Positions 40,938 to 48,374 of a DNA stretch of 64,000 nucleotides are shown piece after piece (position 1 is the first letter of the stretch; each line of letters begins with the position of its first letter). Origin of the DNA: Teredinibacter turnerae. GTDB lineage: Bacteria; Pseudomonadota; Gammaproteobacteria; Pseudomonadales; Cellvibrionaceae. The DNA lies in contig NZ_CP149817.1 in the NCBI RefSeq assembly GCF_037935975.1, positions 5,208,001 to 5,272,000 on the forward strand, in the 5' to 3' direction. The notes below the pieces were generated by a model. The model saw only the letters and a list, made by a program, of their open reading frames with translations, was not told the DNA's origin and did not search any database. The position numbers were made by a program, and so were the translations under genes.

Positions 40938-42830
40938 ATGATTTTTCCTGACAAATTTGATGTGATCGTAATTGGCGGTGGCCATGCAGGCACTGAGGCC
41001 TGTCTGGCGGCCGCGCGCATGGGCTGTAAAACCCTGCTGTTGAGTCACAACATAGAAACATTGGGCCAGATGAGTTGTAACCCGGCTATTGGCGGTATCG
41101 GGAAAAGCCATTTGGTGAAGGAAATCGACGCGCTTGGCGGTGCAATGGCAACCGCCACCGACAAAGGCGGTATTCAGTTTCGCGTGTTGAACAACCGCAA
41201 AGGCCCGGCCGTGAGGGCAACCCGTGCCCAGGCAGACCGTGTGCTTTACAAGGCTGCGGTTCGGGAAATCCTCGAAAACCAACCAAATCTCACAATCTTC
41301 CAACAGGCTGCTGACGATTTAGTGGTCGAGGGCGAAACGGTGCGCGGCGTGGTAACGCAAATGGGCGTGACCTTCCTGGCGCCGACCGTAGTGCTCACAG
41401 CAGGTACATTTTTAGGTGGGCGTATTCATATCGGGCTGGAAAATCATTCCGGCGGACGTGCCGGAGATCCGCCCTCAATCGCGCTGGCGGATCGTTTACG
41501 TGAACTGCCATTGCGTGTCGACAGATTAAAAACCGGCACGCCACCGCGAATTGACGCCCGCTCAGTGAATTTTGACGGACTGGATGAGCAGTGGGGTGAC
41601 TCCCCTACGCCGGTGATGTCGTTTTTAGGTTCGCTGGAAGATCATCCGCGCCAGACCTGCTGTTGGGTGACACACACCAATGAGCGCACTCACGACATTA
41701 TTCGCAGTGGTTTTGACCGCTCGCCGATGTTTACTGGCGTGATTGAGGGAGTCGGCCCTCGTTACTGCCCGAGCATCGAAGACAAGGTCAATCGCTTCGC
41801 CGATAAAAACAGCCACCAGATTTTTATTGAGCCCGAAGGCCTGACTACGCACGAGCTCTATCCCAACGGCATTTCTACCAGCCTCCCCTTTGATATCCAG
41901 CTGGCACTGGTGCGTTCGATTAAGGGATTTGAAAACGCCCATATTGTGCGCCCCGGCTATGCCATCGAGTACGACTTCTTTAATCCACAGGATCTGCAGT
42001 ACAGCCTGGAAACTAAAGTGATTAGCGGTTTGTTTTTCGCCGGCCAGATCAACGGCACCACGGGTTACGAAGAAGCCGGTGCACAAGGTTTGCTGGCGGG
42101 TGCCAACGCGGCCCTAAAAGCACAGGGTAAAGAACCCTGGTGTCCGGAGCGGGATCAAGCCTACATGGGTGTGCTGGTGGACGATTTAATTACCATGGGC
42201 ACCCGCGAACCCTACCGGATGTTCACCAGTCGCGCGGAGTATCGCTTGCTGCTGCGTGAAGATAACGCCGATTTGCGCCTGACAGAAAAAGGCCGCGAGT
42301 TGGGCCTGGTAGACGATACCCGCTGGGCGGCATTCTGTGAAAAACGCGAGCAGATCGAACAGGAAACCCAGCGCATGCGCAGCACCTGGATTCAGGCGAA
42401 CAGCGCAGAAGCGTCGCAACTGGCCAACAAGCTTACCGCGCCATTGAACCGGGAATATTCACTGCTCGATTTGTTAAAGCGGCCGGAACTGACCTATGCG
42501 GATCTTGGTAATCTTAAAGGACAGGCTGTCGCCAATGCGCAGGTCGCAGAACAGGTGGAAATTACCGCGAAGTACGCTGGCTACATTGATCGCCAGCAAG
42601 ACGAGATTGCACGCCTGCGCCAGCACGAAAACACGCCGATTCCCGCCAGCTTCGATTACGACTCGGTGGAAGGCCTCTCTAACGAGTTAAAACAGAAACT
42701 CAACGAAGCGCGGCCAGACAATATTGCGCGCGCGTCACGCATTCCCGGCATTACGCCGGCGGCTATTTCGCTGCTGGTTATCTATTTGAAAAAGCGCGGC
42801 ATGTTGCGCAAGGTAGCTGCGGAAAATTAG
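40938..42830 (+). CDS. mnmG: tRNA-cmnm5U34 synthesis enzyme MnmG (GidA)
   Basis: A 630-residue FAD enzyme of usual length. The dinucleotide-binding motif [13 protein letters not shown] lies at the N-terminus, with [20 protein letters not shown] and the cysteine-bearing [13 protein letters not shown] later. The C-terminus ([21 protein letters not shown]) is the MnmE-binding helical region. The ATG at 40938 ([14 protein letters not shown]) gives the family's normal start. The frame is open to 40905, but that adds 11 unconserved residues. It acts with MnmE on tRNA. The next gene in most relatives, rsmG, is displaced 5.7 kb to the right. Confidence 0.97.
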
Positions 42831-42837
42831 AGGTTCC

Positions 42838-43584
42838 CTAGAGCAGTTGCACCAGCTTGCTGTAACCCGCGCGGGAAATTGCCAGCTGCATACCGTTTTT
42901 TAGGTTCGCGAGACGGCTGTCTTTGGTTTCGGTTTCGATACCGGCGAGGTAGTCGAGGTTGATAATCGCTGAGCGGTGAATGCGGCAAAACTGGCGTGGG
43001 TCGAGGCGGGTCTCCAGTTTGCTGAGTCGCTCCTGCTTGATCAGTTTTTGTTGCGCGGTGTGAATAACTACATAATCGTCGGCCGCTTCGAGCGCGATAA
43101 TATCCCGTGTCATTACCACATGCACATCGCCTTTTTCACGTACCAGAATACGGTTAATCGGCGTGTTTTCCTGCTGATGGACCGTCAGCAAGTTTTCCAT
43201 TGTGTCAGCTTGCGGGGTGCTGGTTTGCAGCCGAGTGTGCAAGCGGTCGACGCACGCCTGCAACCTCGCTTTAGCAACAGGTTTTAGCAGGTAGTCGACC
43301 GCGTTATTCTCGAATGCCCGAATCGCGTAGTCGTCGTGCGCGGTTACAAACACCACCAGTGGGGCCGCTTCGCCCAACAGCTCGAGCACATCGAATCCGT
43401 CGAGCTTGGGCATTTGAATATCGAGAAATAAGACATCGGGCTGCAGTTTGTGTACAGCTTTGACCGCGGCAAGCCCGTTTTCGCAGCGGTCAACAACAGC
43501 GATTTGTGGATACTCCCCCAGCATGCGTTCCAGGGCCTGGCGCGCATGGGGTTCGTCATCCACGATAATCGCTGATAGCGTCAT
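42838..43584 (-). CDS. LytTR-family response regulator
   Basis: A 248-residue regulator. The receiver domain (1-~120) has the acidic pair DDE at 9-11, the phospho-acceptor Asp55 in FLDIQMPKLDG, and a conserved lysine in LLKPV. The LytTR DNA-binding domain (~145-248) has RILVREKGDV and RQFCRIHRSAIINL. Such regulators (AlgR, VirR, LytR class) pair with PF06580 kinases, as here. Its ATG overlaps the TGA of the upstream lipoprotein gene (ATGA). It is the last gene of the leftward stress-type locus and converges on mnmG with a 7-base gap. Confidence 0.92.
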   Translation of the reverse strand: MTLSAIIVDDEPHARQALERMLGEYPQIAVVDRCENGLAAVKAVHKLQPDVLFLDIQMPKLDGFDVLELLGEAAPLVVFVTAHDDYAIRAFENNAVDYLLKPVAKARLQACVDRLHTRLQTSTPQADTMENLLTVHQQENTPINRILVREKGDVHVVMTRDIIALEAADDYVVIHTAQQKLIKQERLSKLETRLDPRQFCRIHRSAIINLDYLAGIETETKDSRLANLKNGMQLAISRAGYSKLVQLL

Positions 43585-44336
43585 AACGGGTAGTAATCCA
43601 CGTTAAATTCCAGTTCCGCGTACTGCTCTATTTTTATATTGCCGCCATCGTAATGGCTGTCCAGGACGCCTTCAACTATGCGCGAAACCCGCAGCTTACC
43701 GGAGCAACTGCTGTCTTCGTGGGGAAGTTCATTGTCTAGCAGCTCGGCAAAATTAAAGCTGTTGTAACTACCGGTATCAGTAATCTCTTCCTCAAAATAA
43801 TAGCTGTTAGAGGTACTCATATAAGTACAGTTGAGCCCGGTTTGGACTGTGATCGAGCCGGAATAATTTTTTTCCCAGCTGACATGGATGTCTTCGTCTA
43901 TGCTGACGCTGTGCTTGGTGGTGGGTGAGTGGGAGACAAAGTTTACCTTCGGCGGCACGACCACGTAGCTTTCCGGCGCATCCGCGTCGTTGGGCCGCAT
44001 AAAAATAATGTCGATCGTTTCGCCAGGAATGTTATCCGTAAATGATGTGATGTAACTGTCGAAGAGTCCGAAAGCCTGCGGCTCCCGTTCGAGCTTCTGA
44101 ATATTGCCGTAGGCGGTAGCATAGAGCAGTTCGTCGCTGGTTAACTCAACATCAGAACCATTGGGGCCGCCTGCGGTAAGGCGCACGTCTACGTCGGTTT
44201 TATTGCCGACAGCATAGATTCGTATAGTTGCGTGAATACCTTCGGTTTTTAAGTCGCTCGAGTCGACTGTGCCGCCACCGCAGGCACTCAACAATACCGC
44301 TGGCAGTGCCGTCAAAAGTAAAAGTTTTGGCTTCAT
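43581..44336 (-). CDS. Lipoprotein encoded between kinase and regulator
   Basis: A 251-residue lipoprotein starting MKPKLLLLTALPAVLLSACGGG, with lipobox LLSAC. No family was recognised. The mature part is beta-rich and acidic, with TIRIYAVGNKTDVDVRLTAGG and repeated polar/hydrophobic alternation, which suggests an immunoglobulin-like fold. The start at 44336 is set by AAGGAA nine bases upstream. It lies 43 bases after the kinase gene and overlaps the regulator start by 4 bp. A lipoprotein in this position suggests an accessory sensor or a regulated surface product; this is inference. Confidence 0.75.
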   Translation of the reverse strand: MKPKLLLLTALPAVLLSACGGGTVDSSDLKTEGIHATIRIYAVGNKTDVDVRLTAGGPNGSDVELTSDELLYATAYGNIQKLEREPQAFGLFDSYITSFTDNIPGETIDIIFMRPNDADAPESYVVVPPKVNFVSHSPTTKHSVSIDEDIHVSWEKNYSGSITVQTGLNCTYMSTSNSYYFEEEITDTGSYNSFNFAELLDNELPHEDSSCSGKLRVSRIVEGVLDSHYDGGNIKIEQYAELEFNVDYYPL

Positions 44337-44379
44337 TATTAAATTCCTTGTGCACAATTGAATGGGTATTCCGTCAAGT

Positions 44380-45480
44380 CTAAGCCAATGACTCCGCTGA
44401 TTGTGTAACAAGGTGTATCGTAAATGGGAGTTCAACCTGCACAATAAAACGGCGATCTACTGTTTCTGTGTTTAGTTGGAAATTGACGCCAAAGTGGGCA
44501 TGTAGGCGCTTGCGCAATGTGCTGAGTCCTACTCTGGTGGAATCGGCCTTAGTACCACTGGGGTCGAGGGAATTTTCAATGCGAACTGTGAGCATCCCGT
44601 TCGCAACATTGGCATCGACGGTGATAAATCCCGAATCCGTACTCGAGTTAATACCGTGTTTTATGCTGTTTTCGATGAGCGGAAACAATAACAAAGGAAA
44701 AACCTGCGCGGCGTTGGCTTGCTCACTAACCCGGATGCTGAGTTTGATTTTCTCGGGAAAACGCTCGCTCTCCACTGCAAGGTAATTTTGAATATGGTTA
44801 ATTTCATCAGCCAGGGAGACTTGTGGCCGGCTTGAATAATTGACGCTATAGCGTAAAAATTCTGCCATCTGCACGCATAAACCGTGGATTTTTTCCGGCT
44901 CCACCAGACTTAAATTTGCCAGCGTGTTCAAGCTGTTATACATAAAATGTGGGTGCACGCTGGCTTTAACGCTGGTGAAATCGATGCTTTTAATCAACAA
45001 TTGTTGTTGCAATTCCTGAGCATATTTTTGCTCACTGGCAACTGCATGCAGATAGGTGTAGTGAATTAAAATCCAGGTGCAATATAAGATAGCGCCCAGT
45101 AGCCAATGCGCGTTAAACGTACGTTGAAAAAAAACGTTTCCTTCCAGTAAGCCTAGATTATCCATTTGGCTCGCCCAGCCAAAACCCAAAAGCAGCCAGA
45201 GAGACACACTGACTGCAAGTGCAATTAACTGGCTGCCGATAACGACGGGCAAGGGATAAACGTTAAATTGCAGTAGTTGGCATAGGTAGTAATTCGAAAA
45301 ACAAATAAATAAAAAAAACAAATACCAGGGCAAAACCAGCACAAAGCTGTGAGCGTACAACTGTCCGATGTTGGCATTGGTTGCCAGTAGCACCATTAAC
45401 ATGGCCACACAGCAGCAAATAAACAACCAGAAAAAAAACACCACAATAAAGTTGCGCGGTGCGCTTAGCAAAGGGTGCAT
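44380..45480 (-). CDS. LytS-type membrane histidine kinase (PF06580)
   Basis: A 366-residue sensor kinase. Four hydrophobic segments lie in the first ~145 residues, then a short helix and the His_kinase motif SVHPHFMYNSLNTLANL near residue 170-186, with the phospho-accepting histidine in HPHF. The ATPase part has LIENSIKHGI and a GLSTLRKRLHAHFG region (about 260-345). No PAS or other sensor domain is seen, so sensing is probably through the membrane helices or a partner protein. It is encoded 32 bases after the LiaF-like gene and followed by the lipoprotein and LytTR regulator. Confidence 0.9.
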   Translation of the reverse strand: MHPLLSAPRNFIVVFFFWLFICCCVAMLMVLLATNANIGQLYAHSFVLVLPWYLFFLFICFSNYYLCQLLQFNVYPLPVVIGSQLIALAVSVSLWLLLGFGWASQMDNLGLLEGNVFFQRTFNAHWLLGAILYCTWILIHYTYLHAVASEQKYAQELQQQLLIKSIDFTSVKASVHPHFMYNSLNTLANLSLVEPEKIHGLCVQMAEFLRYSVNYSSRPQVSLADEINHIQNYLAVESERFPEKIKLSIRVSEQANAAQVFPLLLFPLIENSIKHGINSSTDSGFITVDANVANGMLTVRIENSLDPSGTKADSTRVGLSTLRKRLHAHFGVNFQLNTETVDRRFIVQVELPFTIHLVTQSAESLA

Positions 45481-45512
45481 AGCTCAGACCTTGGTTGTGA
45501 GTTGGTCGCGGA

Positions 45513-46262
45513 TCAATTGCGAATATTGATACCACCCATACACGCGATACCGGAGACAACCAGGGTTTTTTTCGGTACGCCAATTTTATCTGCCAGACAA
45601 ACAGATTTATCAGACACGCCACCTAACAACGGCAATACCTTTAACGAAACCTGCCAGTGAGGAGGAATCTTTATATCAGCCCCTCCCATCAGCGCGACTA
45701 TATCGAGCTGCATTGTCGAGCCAATAAAATCCGCTTCGCGCAAGTCCAGATCGGCACCGCCCATCAAACAGAAAATGTTGCCGCCGTTTAATTCCTGGGA
45801 GCTTTTTGTGTAATTGCCGCCGCCGAGGATGGCATAAATATCCAGGCGTTCATTATCCGGTGATGGCAGACCCTCAGGGTCTTCGTCTTGTTTGTTAAAA
45901 TTAAACAGCGATTTCTTAAAGTTTGCGCGCTGGGGGTTCAGCAGGTAGAGCCCCACACCGAATATAATCAGTGGTGCGAGAACACTGTGGAAGCTGAGAT
46001 TGAACAAGCCGCGCTGGACGAGAAAAAACAGTGTGCCGACTGCGATCAGTGCGTAGGGGCCAAAGCCTGCGTGCATAGTCGGGTGGCGCTTTGCGCGGTA
46101 CAGTAACAGTGCTCCTATTACAATTAATACCAACGGCCACTGCGAGAGAATATAACCGAGCAGTCGAATGCCAATATTATTAAGAAATACCAGCAGTGCG
46201 ATTGAGATGAGAACCAGGCCAATAACTACGCGAGGTTGCGTATGACCACGCCATTTGTGCAT
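45513..46262 (-). CDS. LiaF-like membrane protein (DUF5668/toastrack)
   Basis: A 249-residue protein. An N-terminal group of four short hydrophobic segments (about 12-105) resembles DUF5668/LiaI-LiaF membrane regions. The soluble C-terminal half (about 145-249) has repeated GG motifs, IFCLMGGADLDLREADF, IVALMGGADIKIP and LPLLGGVSDK. This is the pattern of the LiaF 'cell-wall-active antibiotics response' domain. In Firmicutes LiaF keeps the LiaS kinase silent until envelope stress. The start at 46262 has AGGGAG eight bases upstream. It lies directly before the histidine kinase gene, which supports a similar sensory partnership. Confidence 0.82.
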   Translation of the reverse strand: MHKWRGHTQPRVVIGLVLISIALLVFLNNIGIRLLGYILSQWPLVLIVIGALLLYRAKRHPTMHAGFGPYALIAVGTLFFLVQRGLFNLSFHSVLAPLIIFGVGLYLLNPQRANFKKSLFNFNKQDEDPEGLPSPDNERLDIYAILGGGNYTKSSQELNGGNIFCLMGGADLDLREADFIGSTMQLDIVALMGGADIKIPPHWQVSLKVLPLLGGVSDKSVCLADKIGVPKKTLVVSGIACMGGINIRN

Positions 46263-46275
46263 GTGAGAGCTCCCT

Positions 46276-46428
46276 TTAGGCGATAGAACACAGGCTGCTG
46301 GGCAACCAGGTGACCAGTGTGGTTGCCCAGAGTTTAAAGCCAATAGTGTCGATAAGTAAGAATGTAAAAAATAAAACAATCCCGGCAAGCGCAATGGTTC
46401 GCGCAGAAACTCGATCCAATAGTTCCAT
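46276..46428 (-). CDS. 50-residue single-helix membrane protein
   Basis: A small protein (MELLDRVSARTIALAGIVLF at the start) with one or two hydrophobic stretches and a short polar end. The ATG at 46428 has AGGAAA eight bases upstream. The gene lies 13 bases before the LiaF-like gene and 14 bases after the DUF4389 gene, so all are probably one transcript. No family was recognised. Its size and position recall LiaI-type partners of LiaF, but the resemblance is only of layout. Confidence 0.6.
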   Translation of the reverse strand: MELLDRVSARTIALAGIVLFFTFLLIDTIGFKLWATTLVTWLPSSLCSIA

Positions 46429-46442
46429 GCGAATATTTCCTG

Positions 46443-46775
46443 CTAGTCCCGGTTGTCCGCCGGCCACTGCTGTACAGGTGACGCATCTGGCCAGGGAGCG
46501 AATGGGAAGGGTTTTTCGTCGCTGTTGTAGCTGACAAAAAGCAGCGCACGATGAATAAACTGGCTGAGAGAACGGGCAAAATGGCGCAGCTGGCTGTTGT
46601 CCTCTCCTGTGGTAACAACAAAAATAAACTGTAGCAGGCAGATTACCCACATTACGCCCGCAGCAAGATTAAGCAACGCGGCAAAAAGTAACATGTACAG
46701 CAAGCGCAACCAGGCCTGTTGATTGCGCAAATGGTTGTGAATATCGTCTTGGTCCAATGAATTCTGTGTTTGCAT
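46443..46775 (-). CDS. DUF4389 membrane protein
   Basis: A 110-residue protein starting MQTQNSLDQDD. Two membrane helices (about 25-65) are followed by VVTTGEDNSQLRHFARSLSQ and the C-terminal KPFPFAPWP. This is the signature of PF14333 (DUF4389), whose function is unknown. The start at 46775 has AAGGAG six bases upstream; an ATG at 46781 directly abuts that site and is excluded. It is probably the first gene of the leftward envelope-stress type locus. Confidence 0.78.
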   Translation of the reverse strand: MQTQNSLDQDDIHNHLRNQQAWLRLLYMLLFAALLNLAAGVMWVICLLQFIFVVTTGEDNSQLRHFARSLSQFIHRALLFVSYNSDEKPFPFAPWPDASPVQQWPADNRD

Positions 46776-46892
46776 CGTCATCTCCTTGAAACAGAGATGG
46801 CAGAATACTCCGACCAGGTCAGAAAATACGGCGCAACTCGGTGAGTGGCGCCGCTGCATCGGCGAATGACGAAAATGCGGTGATGGTGAATG

Positions 46893-48374
46893 TTAATCCG
46901 TGAGGGAATCGACCTTTAGGCGCGCCTTAAAGGCATCCACCACCGTTTCCAACACCTGCACGCGCGCGCGGTCTTTAAAGTCCGTGCTCACCACCGTCCA
47001 GGGTGCATGTGGGGTGCTGGTGCGTTCAATCATATCTTCCACTGCCGTTACATAGTCGTCCCAGCGTTCGCGGTTGCGATAGTCCTCCTCGGTAATTTTG
47101 AATTGCTTATAGGGTGTTTGCTCGCGATCCTGAAAGCGCTGCAATTGCTCCTGATTGCTGATGTTGAGCCAAAATTTGAGTACCACACTGTTGTGAATGG
47201 TGAGTTGCTCTTCGAAGTCGTTAATTTCCTTGTACGCGCGCAGCCATTCGGTTTCGCTGGCGAAGCCTTCGACACGTTCGACGAGAACACGACCATACCA
47301 GCTGCGATCAAATATGGTCATTTGACCGTTTTGCGGTATATCGCGCCAAAAACGCCACAGATAGTGATGGGCGTATTCTTCTTCGGTGGGTTTTGCGATG
47401 GGCTTAATCCGATAAAAACCCGCGTCCAAGGGGGCGACCAGGCGCCGTATTGCGCCGCCTTTACCGGCGGCATCCCATCCTTCGAAAGCCATCACTACAG
47501 GAATATTGCGCTCTCGCAACTTGAAGGTAAGTTTGCGCAACTTGGTTTGGAGTTTTTTCAGGCGGGCTTTGGCGTCGCTTTTGTCTGGCTTATTGTCAGT
47601 GGGCTCTGCAGCCATATTAATGGCGGGACGCGGTGCGACCGGCAAGGGTTCGATGCTCTCGGATGTTTGCGGTGTATCCTGTGCCAGCCACTGCTGCAGT
47701 TGGGCTTTTATGATTTCTGCCACCTGTAAGTTGCGGTGACGATCATCAGCGCCGTTAACGACGTGCCAGTGGTTGCGGTGTGTGCTGGTGGCGTTGAGGG
47801 TGTTTTGGATTGCCTCAATCGCATGCGGGTAGTTTTTTAGCGCCAACTCATCTTTCACGTCAAAATAGGGCGTGTCGCGCACTTCGGCCAGGCGCTCGCG
47901 AAGCACGTCCTCACCGATATGCAGCCAGCACTTGATCATCAAGGCGCCGTCGTCAGTGTGCTTTTGTTCGAAGTTGCGTATGTAACTTTCCCGGCGGCGG
48001 AGTTTTTCTGCGTCGATTTCACCGTTGAGGTACTGCACGATGGACGTGCTGGTCCAGTCGCGCAGGTAAATTGCGATTTGGCCTGCGCCGGGCAGGTCCC
48101 GCCAAAACCGCCAGAAAAACGGTTTGCGGTCGTCTTCGTACTGGCTTGGCCCGTAGGCGTTTACACTGAGAAAACGCGGGTCCATCCAGGCCGACAGGGT
48201 GTTGATGGTTTCGTGGCGACCGGAGCGATCATCGCCTGCGATAACGATAATCACGGGTTTGTTGCGATGGCGCACCTGCTGTTGTAGCTGCAGCAGTTCT
48301 GCGCGCAAATCGCGCACGCGGGCTTTGTATTCCTCTTTGGGAATTTTCGGAGCGGGTTGGCTGAGTGAGATCAT
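46893..48374 (-). CDS. pap: Polyphosphate:AMP phosphotransferase (two-domain PPK2)
   Basis: A 493-residue protein made of two PPK2 domains (about 15-230 and 260-490), the layout and length of class II PPK2 (PAP). The second domain has an intact Walker A (FEGWDAAGKGGAIRRL near residue 295) and FDRSWYGRVLVER. In the first the loop is altered (AGDDRSGRHET), as is normal for the N-terminal half. The enzyme makes ADP from AMP with polyphosphate as donor, helping energy recycling under stress. It is a single leftward gene, divergent from rsmG. Confidence 0.92.
   Translation of the reverse strand: MISLSQPAPKIPKEEYKARVRDLRAELLQLQQQVRHRNKPVIIVIAGDDRSGRHETINTLSAWMDPRFLSVNAYGPSQYEDDRKPFFWRFWRDLPGAGQIAIYLRDWTSTSIVQYLNGEIDAEKLRRRESYIRNFEQKHTDDGALMIKCWLHIGEDVLRERLAEVRDTPYFDVKDELALKNYPHAIEAIQNTLNATSTHRNHWHVVNGADDRHRNLQVAEIIKAQLQQWLAQDTPQTSESIEPLPVAPRPAINMAAEPTDNKPDKSDAKARLKKLQTKLRKLTFKLRERNIPVVMAFEGWDAAGKGGAIRRLVAPLDAGFYRIKPIAKPTEEEYAHHYLWRFWRDIPQNGQMTIFDRSWYGRVLVERVEGFASETEWLRAYKEINDFEEQLTIHNSVVLKFWLNISNQEQLQRFQDREQTPYKQFKITEEDYRNRERWDDYVTAVEDMIERTSTPHAPWTVVSTDFKDRARVQVLETVVDAFKARLKVDSLTD

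What the first reader, a model, noticed from the sequence alone, without database searches (positions are those of the whole stretch)
42838..46775. LiaF-like membrane module joined to a LytS/LytTR two-component system and a lipoprotein
Six leftward genes, closely spaced or overlapping, encode a DUF4389 membrane protein, a 50-residue membrane protein, a LiaF-like protein, a PF06580 kinase, a lipoprotein and a LytTR regulator. In Firmicutes LiaF acts with a LiaS/LiaR pair of a different kinase and regulator class. Here the same type of membrane protein sits beside a LytS/LytTR pair in a Gram-negative, with a lipoprotein whose stop overlaps the regulator start. This suggests an envelope-stress sensor built from other parts, with the lipoprotein as an accessory sensor or output. 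I do not know it as a described system, though parts of it may be.
Basis: partly seen in the sequence, partly recalled or inferred. Interest (0 to 1): 0.62.

Follow-up and report, generated by a model that had tools for sequence, protein, structure and literature searches.

The report
LiaF-type sensor wired to LytS/LytTR
A small group of neighbouring genes in a shipworm-symbiont-like bacterium probably forms a membrane-stress switch in which a LiaF-type membrane protein is paired with a different kind of sensor kinase and regulator than in Gram-positive bacteria, and the regulator probably switches on its own gene cluster.

Summary
The six genes exist as described. The core is not chance: LiaF, PF06580 kinase and LytTR regulator are neighbours in 20 genomes, including all 17 genomes with a long LiaF ORF in a 120-genome family sample. 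DUF4389 belongs to the core in one subtype (13 loci). The lipoprotein does not: it is in 3 of those 13 operons, and relatives lie elsewhere. LiaF is predicted to have four membrane helices and a C-terminal Toastrack domain (best solved match 4QRK, Z 9.5). New here: a direct repeat RCCGA-N16-RCCGA (21-bp period) upstream of 13 of 13 DUF4389-type operons, always exactly 30 bp before a TANNNT element, the layout of a LytTR activator site. In the window's genome the other four exact matches lie inside ORFs, so the operon's own promoter is the only evident target. Best reading: a LiaF-controlled LytS/LytTR system that activates its own operon in response to an unknown membrane signal. [quoted passage not shown] So this is a new variant of a known kind. 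No binding, expression or phenotype was tested.

The parts
46838..46866 (-). direct repeat TTCGCCGA-N13-CTCACCGA, predicted binding site of the LytTR regulator
   Evidence: CCGA-N17-CCGA in 13 of 13 DUF4389-type operons; the only match without mismatch in the window
46802..46807 (-). TATTCT, predicted -10 element, exactly 30 nt downstream of the repeat
   Evidence: TANNNT at distance 30 in 13 of 13 DUF4389-type and 4 of 5 g2-type loci; not picked up by the sigma-70 consensus scan
46443..46775 (-). DUF4389 (PF14333) membrane protein, 110 aa
   Evidence: found in 13 of 20 triad loci
46276..46428 (-). 50-aa membrane protein; no recognisable equivalent in G004 and G001
45513..46262 (-). LiaF-like protein: predicted four membrane helices plus C-terminal Toastrack/LiaF_C domain
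44380..45480 (-). LytS/AlgZ-class histidine kinase (PF06580) with N-terminal membrane domain; H-box HPHFMYNSLN, N-box ENSIKH
43581..44336 (-). lipoprotein between kinase and regulator; lineage-specific cargo
42838..43584 (-). REC-LytTR response regulator with conserved phospho-acceptor region FLDIQMP

Best explanation
The locus is one operon encoding a LiaF-controlled LytS/LytTR signalling circuit. LiaF sits in the inner membrane by four helices and presents its Toastrack domain to the cytoplasm, where it holds or tunes the neighbouring PF06580 kinase. A membrane or envelope disturbance changes this contact, the kinase phosphorylates the LytTR regulator, and the regulator binds the 21-bp-period direct repeat just upstream of the operon promoter and activates it. 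The outputs are the operon's own membrane proteins (DUF4389, the 50-aa protein, LiaF and, in a few species, an acquired lipoprotein). More LiaF would then damp or reset the kinase. Shown by computation: gene content, conserved linkage, predicted LiaF fold, conserved repeat plus -10 geometry, and no other promoter-placed exact match in this genome. Inferred: that the regulator binds the repeat and activates, the sign of LiaF's effect, the stimulus, and the envelope role.
For: LiaF-kinase-LytTR in 20 loci; in the family sample 17 of 17 genomes with a LiaF ORF of at least 200 aa have kinase and regulator beside it. PF22570 in 21 of 21 and PF09922 in 20 of 21 aligned LiaF proteins at E<=0.01, 19 of them from triad loci. 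Model with membrane helices and a C-terminal beta domain, matched to 4QRK at Z 9.5, rmsd 3.2, 117 residues; the next chain for that domain has Z 5.1. Ravi 2024 names 4QRK as a Toastrack example. CCGA-N17-CCGA in 13 of 19 upstream regions, against a mean of 0.1 and a maximum of 2 in 2000 first-order Markov resamplings. TANNNT exactly 30 nt after it in 13 of 13; its frequency over these same regions is 0.012, sites included. LytTR sites are two repeats of 9-11 nt with 11-13 nt between them (PMC4847170, passages), and most LytTR regulators bind upstream of -35 and activate (PMC11347149, passages). In G000 the other four exact matches lie inside ORFs.
Against: No binding, expression or phenotype data. 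The pattern was derived from these promoters, and its genome-wide matches only modestly exceed the reversed control (130 against 85 over 20 genomes); with one mismatch the window has 2 matches where shuffles give a mean of 0.92 and 23 of 100 reach 2. So position, conservation and the fixed distance carry the case. 97 of the 117 non-operon matches were not examined, and diverged targets would be missed. The sigma-70 scan does not list the predicted promoter. G671 has no CCGA pair at the 21-bp period, and the g2 loci use 20 bp. Kinase-regulator pairs scoring against the kinase profile also occur without LiaF in G322 and G369. The PF09922 score of the window protein is below cut-off. Foldseek gave no hit at E<=0.001 (4QRK 2.8e-3), and the model rests on three sequences (mean pLDDT 67). 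The window kinase has R where G003 has the first G of the G-box.
Confidence: 0.58

Rival explanations
1. The kinase-regulator pair senses something else (for example a small metabolite, as BtsSR and YpdAB sense pyruvate), and LiaF and DUF4389 are simply its target genes, membrane effectors with no role in sensing.
For: The promoter evidence shows only that the genes are likely co-regulated. The regulator's best NCBIfam match is BtsR, below cut-off (177.7 against 246 bits). BtsSR and YpdAB are pyruvate-responsive (PMC5552118, passages). Related kinase-regulator pairs exist without LiaF (G322, G369).
Against: No sensor domain is recognised in the kinase by Pfam, and LiaF is directly beside the kinase also in all 7 loci where no DUF4389 was found, as expected for a dedicated signalling partner.
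Confidence: 0.25
2. The lipoprotein is an accessory sensor that signals to the LiaF-kinase complex in the species that have it.
For: It lies between kinase and regulator with a 4-nt overlap; the insertion is shared by G000, G003 and G005, and G005 has two tandem copies.
Against: Not found in 10 of 13 DUF4389-type and 7 of 7 other operons. G007 has this operon without it but two homologues elsewhere, and several distant members sit beside outer-membrane-barrel-like genes. Its fold could not be predicted (pLDDT 39.5).
Confidence: 0.1
3. The genes are a coincidental neighbourhood without a shared function.
For: LiaF is rare in the class (8 of 369 genomes over cut-off), and 5 of those 8 showed no kinase nearby.
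Against: The core order is kept in 20 genomes of four families, at roughly 25-94% protein identity, with one promoter layout in 13 of 13 type A and a close one in 4 of 5 g2 loci.
Confidence: 0.03

Closest known systems
LiaFSR / VraTSR three-component systems of Firmicutes
   Same: LiaF-type protein (LiaF-TM plus Toastrack) encoded beside a kinase and a regulator
   Different: Kinase is PF06580 and the regulator LytTR, not a LiaS-type kinase and an HTH regulator; DUF4389 is added; Gram-negative host
Proteobacterial LiaI-LiaF-TM/Toastrack plus two-component arrangement noted in Ravi et al. 2024 (ABD83157.1)
   Same: Very probably the same arrangement: G323 has exactly the length given for S. degradans 2-40 (5,057,531 bp) and carries the DUF4389-type operon
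   Different: In the passages seen it is one sentence without kinase or regulator class or promoter; DUF4389 and LytS do not occur in the main text. The accession-to-species link is recalled; Table S4 was not readable here
[quoted passage not shown] 2024)
   Same: LytTR DNA-binding protein encoded with a LiaF-TM/Toastrack protein (one sentence)
   Different: Firmicutes; no kinase is mentioned in that sentence. Not examined further here
LytS/LytTR pairs of gammaproteobacteria (BtsSR, YpdAB; AlgZR recalled)
   Same: PF06580 kinase plus REC-LytTR regulator; tandem-repeat site two helical turns apart
   Different: LiaF partner, different repeat sequence than YpdB's GGCATTTCAT, own operon as apparent target
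Psp / Lia envelope stress systems in general
   Same: Toastrack and LiaF-TM partner domains
   Different: No PspA, PspB or PspC match among the six proteins

Membership tests
LiaFSR-type three-component system | LiaF protein with LiaF-TM domain | tested here: met
   PF22570 55 bits against cut-off 27; 21 of 21 aligned proteins at E<=0.01
LiaFSR-type three-component system | C-terminal LiaF/Toastrack domain | tested here: met
   PF09922 below cut-off for the window protein but E<=0.01 in 20 of 21; fold match 4QRK Z 9.5
LiaFSR-type three-component system | LiaS-type kinase (TM, HAMP, kinase domain of another class) | tested here: not met
   Kinase is PF06580; no other kinase family above cut-off
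LiaFSR-type three-component system | LiaR-type regulator with HTH output domain | tested here: not met
   Output domain is LytTR PF04397
LiaFSR-type three-component system | Response to cell-envelope antibiotics | not testable with these tools
   Needs a reporter experiment
LytS/LytTR two-component system | PF06580 kinase with conserved H-, N- and G-boxes | tested here: met
   PF06580 69.6 bits, HATPase_c below cut-off; H- and N-box intact, G-box recognisable with one unusual residue
LytS/LytTR two-component system | REC-LytTR regulator with phospho-acceptor Asp | tested here: met
LytS/LytTR two-component system | Tandem-repeat site upstream of the -35 region, bound by the regulator | tested here: inconclusive
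   Sequence layout fits; binding not tested
LytS/LytTR two-component system | LytS-type 5TMR sensor domain (only the LytS branch has it; recalled) | tested here: not met
   No such Pfam match in the kinase
Psp system | PspA, PspB or PspC in the operon | tested here: not met
   No match among the six proteins

The most novel reading that the evidence does not exclude
A self-contained membrane-homeostasis loop: the regulator's only promoter target is the operon itself, so LiaF and DUF4389 are at once sensor/brake and effector, and species plug extra cargo (here a lipoprotein) into the loop between kinase and regulator.
Probability: 0.35. Interest if true: 0.55.

Novelty: new variant of a known kind. 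Interest (0 to 1): 0.42.

Why it matters
It would show that LiaF/Toastrack proteins can govern kinases of an unrelated class, so the LiaF module and not the kinase would be the conserved part of this stress logic. It also offers a LytTR system in culturable marine gammaproteobacteria with a precise predicted operator and a built-in target, so the sign of LiaF control can be tested directly with one reporter.

Tried and rejected
Lipoprotein as part of the core: rejected after the neighbourhood comparison. Lipoprotein fold: the single-sequence model was useless (pLDDT 39.5), and the profile search of solved structures gave only tendamistat at E 0.79. LiaF profile against solved-structure sequences: no meaningful match (EmbC, E 0.98).

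A wider regulon: of the 130 pattern matches in 20 genomes, 13 lie in the promoters of the 12 searched type A operons (G006 has two). Of the other 117 I examined 20 (all four in G000, the rest picked by eye from the list): 18 lie inside mechanically called ORFs, one (L146) between convergent genes, one (L149) is intergenic but on the strand opposite to the gene behind it. 97 were not examined.

Against a uniform site: in the g2 loci the period is 20 bp in 4 of 5; G370 has one half-site and its TANNNT at 32 nt; G671 has no pair at period 21. G1042 was not in the promoter count; one stretch of L187 showed three scattered CCGA. G396 (kinase and regulator at a contig edge, LiaF in fragments on another contig) was left out of the triad count. 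The regulator tree separates the 20 triad regulators from 5 others (96/96), but those five are few and on long branches, so a single origin is not shown. Ten literature searches listed no title or abstract that I recognised as an experimental study of such a system; only open-licence papers were searched and supplements could not be read.
Full report
WHAT IS THERE. Gaps are 14, 13, 32 and 43 nt, and the lipoprotein and regulator genes overlap by 4 nt. A consensus promoter/terminator scan of 42700-47050 found no more sites than shuffles (2 against 5.3, and 6 against 5.3) and did not list the promoter proposed below. The window lies in a 5.35-Mb single-contig genome. Its nearest relative, G003 (LiaF 94% identical; contig 5,193,164 bp), is close in size to Teredinibacter turnerae T7901 (5,192,641 bp in PMC2699552, passages seen), so I take the organism to be a Teredinibacter species; that is an inference.

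PROTEINS. LiaF: PF22570 and PF18917 above cut-off, PF09922 below it. Over 21 aligned proteins (19 from triad loci, plus the stand-alone proteins of G029 and L019) PF22570 matches 21 and PF09922 20 at E<=0.01. The predicted model (three sequences, mean pLDDT 67; C-terminal domain mostly 72-87) has membrane helices followed by a beta domain. Its best solved match is 4QRK: Foldseek E 2.8e-3, with nothing at E<=0.001, and Z 9.5, rmsd 3.2 over 117 residues in 128-249. Ravi et al. name 4QRK as a Toastrack example. The kinase has the PF06580 H-box and the N-box; its HATPase match is below cut-off. The regulator is REC-LytTR, one of four LytTR proteins found in the genome.

NEIGHBOURHOOD. 7 of the 8 genus genomes carry DUF4389, LiaF, kinase and LytTR in this order; in G002 no LiaF was found. 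The same four genes occur in four genomes of genus g141, in G323 and in G728 of another order. G323 has exactly the length of Saccharophagus degradans 2-40. LiaF-kinase-LytTR, with no DUF4389 found in the fetched stretch, occurs in five genomes of genus g2 and in G671 and G1042. That makes 13 type A and 7 type B loci in four families.

In the family sample of 120 genomes, 29 have PF22570 above cut-off. Seventeen have an ORF of at least 200 aa, and all 17 have the kinase and regulator beside it. Eleven have only short ORFs (136-189 aa): the neighbourhoods of two (G351, G376) were read and hold no kinase, and the kinase-profile search at E<=1e-40 over what appears from the handles to be the same sample lists none of the eleven. 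One (G396) is fragmentary. That kinase search lists 20 genomes: the 17, G396, and G322 and G369, which have kinase and regulator but no LiaF in the stretch read. Outside the family LiaF is rare. In the class sample 8 of 369 genomes are over cut-off: G000, the triads G671 and G728, and five in whose stretches no kinase was seen. In the phylum sample 10 of 398: G000, the triad G1042, and eight without a kinase in the stretches read, mostly 1.5-kb flanks. The order sample had 4 of 293 with an A3 match, among them G029 and G275 without a kinase beside LiaF. No other phylum was surveyed.

THE LIPOPROTEIN looks like a passenger. It lies in the operon in G000, G003 and G005 (two tandem copies) only. 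Homologues occur in 13 of 144 family genomes at E<=0.01, these three included. G007 has the operon without it and two homologues elsewhere, one between a porin-like and a cellulase-like gene; seven distant members sit next to an outer-membrane-barrel-like protein of 170-204 aa (names by eye).

THE PROMOTER. Upstream regions show a tandem repeat of YYNRCCGA. CCGA-N17-CCGA is found in 13 of 13 type A regions (13 of 19 regions in all), against a mean of 0.1 and at most 2 in 2000 sets resampled by a first-order Markov chain. The pattern was derived from these sequences, so the more independent support is the fixed downstream distance: TANNNT lies exactly 30 nt after the repeat in 13 of 13, where its frequency over the same regions is 0.012. 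In the g2 loci the same half-site recurs at a 20-bp period in 4 of 5, with TANNNT at 30 nt in the same four. LytTR proteins bind two repeats of 9-11 nt separated by 11-13 nt (PMC4847170, passages), and most bind upstream of -35 and activate (PMC11347149, passages); the site fits that layout. Over 20 genomes the exact pattern gives 130 matches against 85 for the reversed control; it hits the operon promoter in 12 of 12 searched type A genomes, and none of the three searched g2 genomes has it there. In G000 the four other matches lie inside ORFs. Hence the operon itself is the only evident target in this genome; diverged sites would have been missed.

MECHANISM. I infer a LiaF-controlled LytS/LytTR circuit with positive autoregulation and LiaF as brake or gate. 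LiaF inhibiting LiaS in Bacillus and VraT supporting VraS in Staphylococcus are recalled, so the sign is open. The stimulus is unknown; envelope stress is the family-based guess.

KNOWN OR NEW. Ravi et al. [quoted passage not shown] From recalled accession numbering ABD83157 falls near gene 3900 of S. degradans, about 4.92 Mb, where the G323 operon lies (4.919-4.923 Mb); I could not check the accession itself (one search found it only in that paper). What I did not see in those passages, and add here, are the kinase class, DUF4389 as a core member of one subtype, the operator-promoter layout, and the finding that the lipoprotein is a lineage-specific insertion.

CHANGE MADE ON CHECKING. Confidence in the best explanation was lowered from 0.60 to 0.58, because the window control and the kinase pairs without LiaF (G322, G369) had been left out of the evidence against it.

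Noticed in passing
window 43581-44336; L161-L178: The lipoprotein belongs to a Cellvibrionaceae lipoprotein family without a Pfam match above cut-off that turns up in unrelated places; seven distant members pair with a small outer-membrane-barrel-like gene.
   Followed up: partly
window 44380-45480, G-box region: The kinase reads DSTRVGLS where its close relative G003 reads DSTGIGLS; G320, G338 and G357 also lack that glycine.
   Followed up: no
L057-L065, L067, L068, L070 (L085, L086 wider): Twelve g2 (Cellvibrio-like) genomes have a short LiaF-TM protein (136-189 aa), including G351, whose length equals C. japonicus Ueda107; the two neighbourhoods read hold no kinase.
   Followed up: partly
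L097 and L187: In G671 and G1042 a second, short LiaF-TM gene precedes the LiaF-kinase-LytTR triad, like a LiaI/LiaF pair.
   Followed up: no
L080 (G388) upstream of LiaF: Three half-sites at 20-bp steps instead of two.
   Followed up: no
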